Assembly (NCBI RefSeq): GCF_000430625.1
Contig: NZ_KE387173.1
Span: 1-64,000 of the forward strand
Source: Aneurinibacillus terranovensis DSM 18919
GTDB lineage: Bacteria > Bacillota > Bacilli > Aneurinibacillales > Aneurinibacillaceae
Direction: 5' to 3'
DNA length: 64,000 nt
Below, one piece after another: positions 5,933 through 34,255 of the stretch. A model generated the notes under the pieces. It was not told where the DNA came from and did no database searches. It saw only the letters and a program-made list of their open reading frames with translations. A program made the translations under genes and the position numbers. Within the stretch, counting starts at the first letter, position 1. Each line of letters opens with the position of its first letter.

Positions 5933-6379
5933 GTGCGCCCGGCATGGGTATTATCTATAGGGTTAGAGTCCTGAATGGTGAAGGCAGTAGTAGCCATTAG
6001 CTTAAGGAAAGGGTGTCGACCGTGAGGTCGAATCTGAAGGAAGCTGGCGGCAAACCTCCGGTCTGAGAAACACGAACCTCATATAAGGCTAGCATTCGTT
6101 GGATGAGTCTGCTAAACAAGGCAAAGTCCTTACTGTCGAAGGCGAATGAGAGTAAATGAGGCAGATAGGTGGAGGGGAAGATAATGCTCTTGCCCATGGT
6201 GAATTCCATGGGAAACTTCAAGAGGGCTGAGAATGATTGCGGCACTGACAGACCGTAAAAGCATAACGGACAGTGAGAGAAAAGACCACTGTCCGTCTGA
6301 CTTCATGGAACCGCCGTATACCGAACGGTACGTACGGTGGTGTGAGAGGTCGGGGGGTTATCACCCCCTCCTACTCGAT
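5933..6379 (+). mobile_element. group IIC intron, ORF-less (no reverse transcriptase)
   Basis: The 447-bp sequence starts with GTGCGCCCGGCATGGGTA and ends with CCTACTCGAT, the 5' and 3' ends of group IIC introns such as the Oceanobacillus iheyensis intron. Domain I motifs such as AGGGTTAGAGTCC and TCTGAAGGAAGCTGGCGG are recognisable. Domain V (6308-6342) has the CGC catalytic triad type, and domain VI (6346-6378) forms the branch-site hairpin. Domain IV, which normally holds the maturase/reverse transcriptase gene, is only a 31-nt hairpin (6266-6296). It may still fold and splice if a maturase acts in trans. Insertion behind the phhB terminator fits class C targeting. It has no coding capacity. 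Confidence 0.9.
6308..6342 (+). ncRNA. group II intron domain V
   Basis: The segment GAACCGCCGTATACCG / CGGTACGTACGGTGGT folds as the short catalytic hairpin of domain V with a GAAC-type tetraloop, and carries CGC in place of the AGC triad. CGC is the form typical of class C introns. Confidence 0.88.
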
Positions 6380-12364: not shown

Positions 12365-12469
12365 ACCGTGTTTTCTTCCTTTCATTTGTTATCTATCATT
12401 ACTATATCCTTTCTAACTGAAAACAAAATGAAAAGGGAAAACGTAACTTTCTTATACGCTATCGTCGGC

Positions 12470-12502
12470 GCCTTTGGCTTGGCGCTAGCCAAGTTTTCTT
12501 TA
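12470..12502 (+). repeat. short dispersed repeat B, partial copy
   Basis: The segment CGGCGCCTTTGGCTTGGCGCTAGCCAAGTTTTCTTTAT matches the repeats at 28295-28347 and, inverted, 44870-44921. It is G+C-rich with internal complementarity (TTGGC/GCCAA) and occurs only between genes. It sits immediately before the larger repeat A. Confidence 0.6.
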
Positions 12503-12503
12503 T

Positions 12504-12767
12504 CGTTAAGGAAAGTATATGTTGCTTTACAGTGTTAAAGCAACATTACTTTCCTCCATGGGTCACCTGAGAAAAACTCACGGGAGTGTGCCGAACGTTG
12601 CTTTTTCGATGTGGAGCGTGTGGTCGAAAGGTCGATCAGACCGACAATTGTCTCCATCATGAGGTACCCGGATGTTTTGTCGGTCCGACCTTCCGGTCAC
12701 TAAGCGGCCGTTTCGCTTCCCTGCAGAAAAAGGACGAGCGGCAACGCCCGCGAGTTTTTCTTATTTA
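12504..12767 (+). repeat. 265-bp palindromic dispersed repeat A, copy 1
   Basis: This block is about 95% identical to 22490-22755 and is non-coding. It begins with a hairpin (GAAAGTATATGTTGCTTTA and its complement), followed by one long imperfect palindrome bounded by GAGAAAAACTCACGGG and CCCGCGAGTTTTTCTT, with inner arms GGTCGAAAGGTCGATCAG.. / ..CGGTCCGACCTTCCGG. The last three bases provide the stop codon of pit on the other strand. It could be a MITE-like element or a transcribed structured RNA; I recognise no named family. Confidence 0.85.
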
Positions 12768-17636: not shown

Positions 17637-17678
17637 GTATTTGTACGAGCGGCACTGCTTATCGACAGTTGTGCCGAA

Positions 17679-17778
17679 ACTACTTTTCCTACGCTGGTAC
17701 AATCCAGATCAGGTTCCAAGAGTTTAGAAACTTCCTCGCGTTTCATTCTCAGCCTGGCTCACAGGCTCCCCTAGTAGT
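17679..17778 (-). promoter_or_regulatory. TPP (THI-box) riboswitch aptamer
   Basis: Read on the minus strand, the conserved blocks appear in order: CTAGGGGAGCC, GGCTGAGAATGAAA, then CTTGGAACCTGATCTGG and ACCAGCGTAGGAAAAGTAG. These form the pyrimidine-sensor helix (CUGAGA) and the pyrophosphate-sensor helix of the thiamine pyrophosphate aptamer. It lies directly before a terminator and the tenI-thiO-thiS-thiG operon. Confidence 0.96.
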
Positions 17779-17844
17779 GCTGTTATTAAGTTTGTTTCCA
17801 TTATAAAGCAAGCGGTGAAAATTTTAAAGGTTTTGATGAGTAAT

Positions 17845-22449: not shown

Positions 22450-22486
22450 AAAAGGGAGGTGCGTAATAGACTGCATCTCCCTTTTT
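22450..22486 (+). terminator. terminator of the yvrJ operon
   Basis: AAAAGGGAGGTGC pairs with GCATCTCCCTTTT (one G-T pair) around a 10-nt loop and ends in T. Repeat A copy 2 begins 4 bp after it. Confidence 0.9.
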
Positions 22487-22489
22487 GAC

Positions 22490-22755
22490 CGTTAAAGAAA
22501 GTATATGTTGCTTTACAGTGTTAAAGCAACATATACTTTCCTCCATGGGTCACCTGAGAAAAACTCGCGGGAGTGTGCCAAACGTTGCTTTTTCGATGTG
22601 GAGCGTGTGGCCGGAAGGTCGATCAGACCGACAATTGTCTCCATCATTGAGGTACCCGGATGTTTTGTCGGTCCGACCTTCCGGTCACTAAGCGGCCGTT
22701 TCGCTTCCCTGCAGAAAAAGGACGAGCGGCAACGCCCGCGAGTTTTTCTCATTTA
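22490..22755 (+). repeat. 265-bp palindromic dispersed repeat A, copy 2
   Basis: Same orientation and about 95% identity with 12504-12767. The leading hairpin (GAAAGTATATGTTGCTTTA with its full complement, 22497-22541) is more perfect here. The main palindrome has 16-bp arms GAGAAAAACTCGCGGG (22556-22571) and CCCGCGAGTTTTTCTC (22735-22750) and inner arms pairing GGCCGGAAGGTCG with CGACCTTCCGGTC. Several base changes are compensatory, which suggests selection for structure (inference). It lies directly behind a terminator. Confidence 0.88.
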
Positions 22756-24241: not shown

Positions 24242-25475
<1,234 letters not shown>

Positions 25476-25480
25476 TGCCA

Positions 25481-25510
25481 ATTATATGGTATGATTTTTT
25501 ATATCATACC
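25481..25510 (-). promoter_or_regulatory. trpS promoter -10 and overlapping inverted repeat
   Basis: TATAAT (minus strand, 25481-25486) lies just before the T-box leader. GGTATGAT (25488-25495) and ATCATACC (25503-25510) form a perfect 8-bp inverted repeat in the spacer/-35 region, a possible repressor site or chance palindrome. No consensus -35 is visible. Confidence 0.4.
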
Positions 25511-33980: not shown

Positions 33981-34108
33981 GCATCACCTATAAGCGTTGT
34001 TTGCGACGCGCAACGAAAAACTACGCGGTGGCAATGGAATGGCCCTTTTTTATTTTTTGTAAGGGTCTTCCCTTGTGGGGATGTTTAACTGCCCAGTGTT
34101 TTTCTGGA

Positions 34109-34180
34109 GTTTGGGGACGTTTTTAGGCCCGACTGACTACATCTTCGAGCTACCCAAATGTTTCGGGCCGGTCCCCAAAC
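34109..34180. repeat. long inverted repeat of unknown role
   Basis: Perfect 10-bp arms GTTTGGGGAC (34109-34118) and GTCCCCAAAC (34171-34180) enclose a second pair, AGGCCCGA/TCGGGCC-type. It lies in a 340-bp gene-free gap (33916-34255) between the CNNM gene and the convergent MerR-like gene. There is no T run, so a simple terminator is unlikely; a structured RNA or small mobile remnant is possible. No other gene is seen in the gap. Confidence 0.55.
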
Positions 34181-34255
34181 GGAAGAGAAGCACGGACACT
34201 AGATACTTCCCTGCAAGGGAAAACTGGCAAAAATAAACAGATTCGATGCATCACG

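What the first reader, a model, noticed from the sequence alone, without database searches (positions are those of the whole stretch)
12504..12767. 265-bp strongly palindromic repeat present twice (12504-12767 and 22490-22755)
The two copies are about 95% identical, intergenic, same orientation, each with a leading hairpin and a long palindrome (16-bp perfect outer arms in copy 2, inner arms GGCCGGAAGGTCG/CGACCTTCCGGTC). No coding potential. They lie next to gene ends (at the pit stop; behind the yvrJ terminator). This looks like an undescribed MITE-like element or structured RNA family.
Basis: seen in the sequence. Interest (0 to 1): 0.7.

Follow-up and report, generated by a model that had tools for sequence, protein, structure and literature searches.

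The report
Terminator-hugging structured DNA repeat in Bacilli
The repeat is real: it is a short, gene-less mobile element with a conserved folded core, present in more than 40 near-identical copies in this genome and in relatives across the Bacilli, and it inserts just behind the stop signals of genes, most likely while that DNA is single-stranded during replication.

Summary
The 260-263 bp block has at least 42 full-length copies (about 95-100% identical) in the host, an Aneurinibacillus-like genome, plus shortened copies and a third, diverged copy in the window (34075-34232). The left end sits directly after a T-tract, mostly of an intrinsic terminator, in the terminator's orientation. Empty sites in a relative show clean insertion without obvious target duplication. 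In sister genome G001, 34 of 36 copies point with the replication fork, more than terminators (64%) or genes (74%) do. The central ~158 nt form a nested hairpin with strong covariation. A covariance model finds it in 63 of 399 sampled Bacilli genomes, but in a phylum-wide sample of 398 only in the own genome. Rfam has no such family; limited literature searches found no description. Best reading: a non-autonomous, hairpin-ended element inserting into the single-stranded lagging-strand template, with ends built like IS200/IS605 (Y1/HUH) elements; a Y1 insertion sequence in the same genome uses a similar target (TTTAT). The enzyme is not identified: no autonomous partner was found, and neither Y1 transposase nor reverse transcriptase occurs in every carrier. 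Group IIC introns, which share the target preference, are the main rival.

The parts
12504..12763 (+). copy 1 of the element
   Evidence: sequence; 95% identical to copy 2; core scored 135 bits by model R1
12476..12503 (+). terminator-like hairpin (GGCTTGGC/GCCAAGTT) and T-tract that form the insertion target of copy 1
   Evidence: hairpin detector and target logo
22489..22751 (+). copy 2 of the element
   Evidence: sequence; core scored 146 bits by model R1
22453..22486 (+). intrinsic terminator behind the yvrJ-like gene, insertion target of copy 2
   Evidence: AGGGAGGTGCG/TGCATCTCCCT followed by TTTTT
22489..22497 (+). left end CCGTTAAAG; TAAA is complementary to the TTTA type of target
   Evidence: target logo over 49 copies; guide role is inference
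22497..22540 (+). left-end hairpin
   Evidence: RNA and DNA folds
22555..22571 (+). outer stem, 5' arm
   Evidence: perfect complement of 22735-22751
22735..22751 (+). outer stem, 3' arm, right end TTTTTCTCA
   Evidence: right junctions of many copies
22575..22730 (+). structured core recognised by the covariance model
22638..22666 (+). most conserved stretch TCTCCATCATTGAGGTACCCGGATGTTTT
   Evidence: invariant and nearly invariant columns of the 38-sequence alignment
34075..34232 (+). third, strongly diverged copy of the core
   Evidence: model R1, 27 bits, E about 1e-5

Best explanation
A non-autonomous mobile element with a conserved structured core. Shown: many recent copies; insertion directly after T-tracts, mostly of terminators, in one orientation; no obvious target duplication; in a sister genome a strong bias for the strand that is the lagging-strand template. 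Inferred: the + strand folds while single-stranded at the replication fork; an enzyme acting in trans cuts after a T-tract ending in TTTA, which pairs with the short TARR stretch before the left hairpin; the right end is set by the long outer stem that ends in TTTTTCTYA. This is how IS200/IS605 (Y1/HUH) elements work. Which enzyme does it is not shown. The conserved core is taken to be the handle that the mobilising machinery recognises.
For: 42 or more full copies. Target logo TTTTTTACC, n = 49. Empty sites L020/L277 and L019/L276. Strand bias 34/36 against 64% for terminators and 74% for genes. Left-end layout (target, short complementary stretch, hairpin) as described for IS608-type elements in PMC6006769. 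A Y1 insertion sequence in the same genome whose five left ends all read TTTAT, two of them behind terminator-like T-tracts. Strong covariation of the core.
Against: No element with the same ends and a transposase gene was found (both capped at 40 scored places). Y1_Tnp is not found in 11 of 16 carrier genomes tested. The target includes a hairpin (34/49 against 37/182 for intergenic T-tracts), which Y1 elements are not known to need. The target is not a strict tetra- or pentanucleotide. Brevibacillus-like members lack the left module and the terminator target.
Confidence: 0.5

Rival explanations
1. Retro-element: a structured RNA copied into DNA behind terminators by a reverse transcriptase in trans, most plausibly that of resident group IIC introns (SINE-like parasitism).
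For: Group IIC introns insert right behind terminators with strand bias (PMC8919778); eight intron left ends in this genome, one in the window, sit at terminator + TTTTT[GAC]. Six copies start normally and stop early; for L148 the right flank is nearly complete (28 against about 36 nt) compared with the empty site.
Against: No ribozyme parts or GUGYG start. RVT_1 not found in 3 of 19 carriers, GIIM not in G003-G007. In G001 shortened copies are mostly internal deletions keeping both ends. If the + strand is the RNA, cDNA synthesis would truncate the other end.
Confidence: 0.2
2. Functional host RNA element (3' UTR or regulatory RNA) kept by selection; multiplication is secondary.
For: Covariation across many genera; G.U exceeds A.C on the + strand in distant members, 47 to 19.
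Against: Position behind terminators means little transcription; copies near different genes; near-identical copies point to recent spread; covariation is equally expected if structure is needed for mobility; G.U against A.C is weak overall (112 to 91).
Confidence: 0.15
3. Classical MITE: deletion derivative of a DDE transposon with terminal inverted repeats.
For: Short, gene-less, with inverted repeats; the outer stem is shared within a genome's subfamily.
Against: No obvious target duplication at the empty sites read; asymmetric, orientation-specific target; the left arm lies about 65 bp inside behind a separate hairpin; arms differ between genera while the interior is conserved.
Confidence: 0.06

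Closest known systems
IS200/IS605-type elements, their non-autonomous derivatives, and REP/BIME repeats (Y1/HUH transposases)
   Same: Hairpin next to the left end with a short stretch complementary to the target, T-rich target left outside, no obvious duplication, lagging-strand-template bias, intergenic, many copies
   Different: No transposase with these ends found; long conserved core of about 158 nt; target also includes a terminator hairpin; far longer than REPs (21-65 nt in PMC6006769)
Group IIC introns
   Same: Insertion directly behind intrinsic terminators in the same orientation, with the same strand bias; both occur in this window
   Different: No ribozyme, no GUGYG start, no reverse transcriptase, no Rfam match
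bcr1-bcr18 repeats of the Bacillus cereus group
   Same: Short folded intergenic elements with mobile features; bcr1 averages 39 copies and is linked to TTTAT motifs (PMC6542083)
   Different: bcr1 is described as specific to the B. cereus group; sequences were not compared here
190-bp repeat of Bacillus subtilis (recalled from memory only)
   Same: Short repeated intergenic element able to form stable secondary structure in a member of the Bacilli
   Different: Not tested: no sequence at hand and no paper found in the library

Membership tests
IS200/IS605 (Y1/HUH) derived element | Full-length partner with the same ends that encodes a Y1 transposase | tested here: not met
   None seen in the own genome with left-end and right-end searches, which were capped at 40 scored places; IS605-type elements read in relatives have other ends
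IS200/IS605 (Y1/HUH) derived element | Insertion 3' of a short fixed target, without duplication | tested here: inconclusive
   T-tract plus A(C) target in nearly all of 49 copies and no duplication at two empty sites, but the target is not a strict tetra- or pentanucleotide and includes a hairpin
IS200/IS605 (Y1/HUH) derived element | Subterminal hairpins at both ends with guide sequences | tested here: inconclusive
   Left end fits; at the right end the arm is the outer stem of the whole core; guide pairing is inferred only
IS200/IS605 (Y1/HUH) derived element | Bias for the lagging-strand template | tested here: met
   34 of 36 in G001, p = 0.002 against gene orientation
Group IIC intron | Ribozyme structure with domain V and GUGYG start | tested here: not met
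   No Rfam match for the element even at E up to 10 that points to a group II intron; start is CCGTTAAAG
Group IIC intron | Insertion behind terminators with strand bias | tested here: met
   compared with PMC8919778
DDE-type MITE | Terminal inverted repeats and target duplication | tested here: not met
   No duplication visible at the empty sites read; left arm not terminal
Rfam families (release 15) | Match at or near a family's gathering score | tested here: not met
REP (GTAG/CGTC-tagged palindromes) | 20-65 nt palindrome with tetranucleotide tag next to a RAYT gene | tested here: not met
   Element is about 260 nt; no RAYT gene among the ORFs listed next to the window copies
bcr repeats | Sequence similarity to bcr1-18 consensus | not tested
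   Consensus sequences were not at hand
IS110 bridge RNA | RNA with target and donor loops next to a DEDD recombinase gene | not tested
   No recombinase-like gene noticed in the loci whose ORFs were listed; the family was not searched

The most novel reading that the evidence does not exclude
An unrecognised, Bacilli-wide class of structured nucleic acid whose folded core is the conserved recognition unit of a mobile element with exchangeable end modules; in Aneurinibacillus the module steers insertion behind terminators on the lagging-strand template, using machinery not yet known.
Probability: 0.35. Interest if true: 0.75.

Novelty: new variant of a known kind. Interest (0 to 1): 0.57.

Why it matters
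Short gene-less repeats are usually specific to one species group and defined by their ends. Here the interior is what lasts, across many genera, while the ends change, which suggests that a folded core is what gets recognised. Landing behind terminators on the lagging-strand template is a way to multiply with little harm to genes, already known for group IIC introns; finding it in an element without ribozyme or protein makes the question of who moves it directly testable. The covariance model also gives annotators a handle on a repeat that Rfam does not hold.

Tried and rejected
Y1_Tnp presence first matched element presence (G003 lacked both); the covariance model then found six diverged elements in G003, so the correlation was dropped. 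Co-occurrence with Y1_Tnp or RVT_1 over more genomes decides nothing. Left-first truncation as proof of reverse transcription: seen in the own genome and supported by one empty site, but not in G001; the counts are small, and loss of terminators is probably selected against, which alone would favour left-intact copies. G.U versus A.C as a test of strand: weak overall, clearer in distant members, on alignments fitted to the structure. Plasmid and phage collections: no copy detectable by blastn; one of 2.9 million viral contigs matches the core pattern. Empty-site alignments for L159, L165, L167, L010 and L028 were too diverged or badly set to read; one search had an orientation error, corrected. 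The beta-proteobacterial pattern hit L099 was taken as chance.

Full report
Observation. Copy 1 spans about 12504-12763 and copy 2 about 22489-22751, same strand, about 95% identical. Copy 2 folds as RNA at -136 kcal/mol, z = -12.3, and as single-stranded DNA with z = -11.3. From left to right: CCGTTAAAG; a 44-nt hairpin (22497-22540); a spacer; a 17-bp outer stem (22555-22571 with 22735-22751) that encloses a long nested hairpin.

Copy number. A search of the host assembly (G000, 4.25 Mb, 98 contigs) gave 40 full-length places, which is the scoring cap, out of 129 candidates. Two more full copies were read afterwards, so 42 is a lower bound. Searches with the left end alone and the right end alone found shortened copies. 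Six have an intact left end and stop early without an assembly gap (L144, L146, L148, L151, L152, L153); one lacks the left part (L165) and so does a second copy in L013; two share the same internal deletion (L149, L167). Copies L145, L147, L150, L154 and L166 are cut by N runs or contig ends and say nothing.

Target. In 49 left ends aligned at GTTAARG, positions -9 to -4 are T in 39-48 of 49, -3 is A in 33, -2 is C in 37 and -1 is C in 48. A strict hairpin precedes the T-tract in 34 of 49, against 87 of 4000 random positions and, the fairer comparison, 37 of 182 intergenic T-tracts of the window on both strands. Several of the remaining 15 look like hairpins that the simple detector misses, but this was judged by eye. 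Terminators before the left end were also seen by reading in copies from G001, G002, G009 and G010; the distant copies of other families do not show it.

Empty sites. At about 75% gene identity to G001 only a few loci could be compared. L020 against L277 shows the terminator and the following gene start with the element missing and about the same distance to the ribosome-binding site; L019 against L276 shows a terminator in the same place and a similar distance to the next promoter-like sequence. No duplication is visible. L148, a 142-nt truncated copy behind a groEL-like gene, keeps 28 nt of right flank where the empty site L243 has about 36, so truncation did not remove much flank. Other comparisons could not be read. 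The orthologue of L152 in G001 carries its own element.

Strand. In 1.6 Mb of G001 (80 stretches) model R2 found 36 copies. GC skew is +0.081 in the 0-0.8 Mb part and -0.078 in the 3.2-4.2 Mb part, which sets fork direction. 34 of 36 copies are co-directional with the fork, against 292 of 454 predicted terminators (p = 2.7e-5) and 277 of 372 ORF-predicted genes (p = 0.002). The terminator predictor contains false positives that pull its figure towards one half, so the gene figure is the safer baseline. Copies are treated as independent although some share ancestry as composite subfamilies. In the window the skew is +0.073 and all three copies are on the + strand. A co-directional + strand is the lagging-strand template.

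Structured core. An alignment of 38 diverse central segments with a hand-set five-helix structure gave 79% paired cells against 66% shuffled and 154 double-change cells against 58 +/- 6; slides of one to three columns destroy it. Model R1 from it found a third copy in the window at 34075-34232, members in all sampled relatives of the family and some in other families. Model R2 was run on 399 Bacilli genomes: 63 positive, 29 of 145 genera; and on 398 genomes drawn over the phylum: one positive, the own genome. That second sample also held other Bacilli, all negative, so it is a check on false positives more than proof of restriction to the class. A set without Aneurinibacillaceae (33 sequences) gave 85% paired against 58%, 247 double-change cells against 77 +/- 8, helices 4 and 5 at 96-97% paired. 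That alignment was fitted to the model, which inflates the percentages; slid controls gave 40-43%. G.U pairs exceed A.C mismatches 47 to 19 there but only 112 to 91 in the larger set: a hint that the + strand is the folding strand.

Hosts. Named records place the core in Aneurinibacillus aneurinilyticus, tyrosinisolvens, danicus, thermoaerophilus and sp. Ricciae_BoGa-3, and in a Paenibacillaceae MAG. That family f23 is Brevibacillaceae is a guess from genome sizes.

Mechanism. Two known machineries use the lagging-strand template and leave no duplication. IS200/IS605 transposases bind subterminal hairpins, with a guide tetranucleotide at the hairpin foot interacting with the target (PMC6006769). 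The left end here has that layout: target ..TTTA(C), then TAAA (TAGG or TAAG in other subfamilies) at the foot of a hairpin. The right end is the outer stem, whose 3' arm ends TTTTTCTYA, like the target. A Y1 insertion sequence in the same genome has five left ends, all reading TTTAT followed by (G/A)AATTAGCCGAG and a hairpin, two of them behind T-tracts that look like terminators. Group IIC introns insert right after terminators with strand bias (PMC8919778), and eight intron left ends in this genome, including a gene-less one in the window at about 5933-6379, sit at such sites. The hairpin in the target fits the introns better; the end anatomy fits Y1 better. Neither protein family is found in every carrier, but old copies do not require a present enzyme. 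I put Y1-like insertion at about 0.5 and the retro route at about 0.2.

Comparison with the known. No Rfam family matches. Full-text searches of an open-access library found no description in Aneurinibacillus or Brevibacillus; most subscription papers are missing there, so this is weak evidence of novelty. bcr1 of the B. cereus group is the nearest described kind: short, folded, intergenic, tens of copies, TTTAT motif (PMC6542083). The B. subtilis 190-bp repeat, recalled from memory, could be a relative and was not tested.

Verdict. A real, multi-copy, mobile, structured repeat family, new to the catalogues that could be searched, with an unusual combination of a conserved interior and terminator-plus-strand targeting. 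Its nature as a mobile element is well supported (about 0.9 in my judgement); the enzyme and any cellular role are open.

Noticed in passing
window 5933-6379 (+): Gene-less group IIC intron (Rfam RF02001 match at 6016-6188) starting GTGCGCCC directly behind a terminator (GGGCCTGCTTTTTTA); ten further full or partial copies in the genome.
   Followed up: partly
window 12440-12503; L026, L029, L155, L159 and L100, L108: A second dispersed sequence, ending GGCTTGGCGCTAGCCAAGTTTTCTTTA, serves as the terminator-like target of several copies in this genome and in other species; it looks like another repeat family.
   Followed up: no
L050, L051, L061, L184, L188, L203, L208, L212: Two or three copies of the core lie within a few hundred bases, often in opposite orientation.
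   Followed up: no
L156 (G000:C27) about 880-1290: A full copy is inserted inside an older, strongly diverged copy of the same core.
   Followed up: partly
L070, L078, L114 and G001 stretches L258, L262, L265, L274: A subfamily of G001 carries an extra hairpin domain inserted in the left half of the core, and another carries a second left-end module in front.
   Followed up: no
L059, L062, L065, L071, L077, L105, L115 (A. aneurinilyticus), L061 (viral contig): A subfamily with other ends (GTTGATTATCCA ... TGGATAATCAAC) and no terminator in front, with the same core.
   Followed up: no
window 25275-25484 (-) and 17668-17782 (-): T-box leader before a tryptophanyl-tRNA synthetase gene and a TPP riboswitch before thiamine genes; ordinary.
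   Followed up: no
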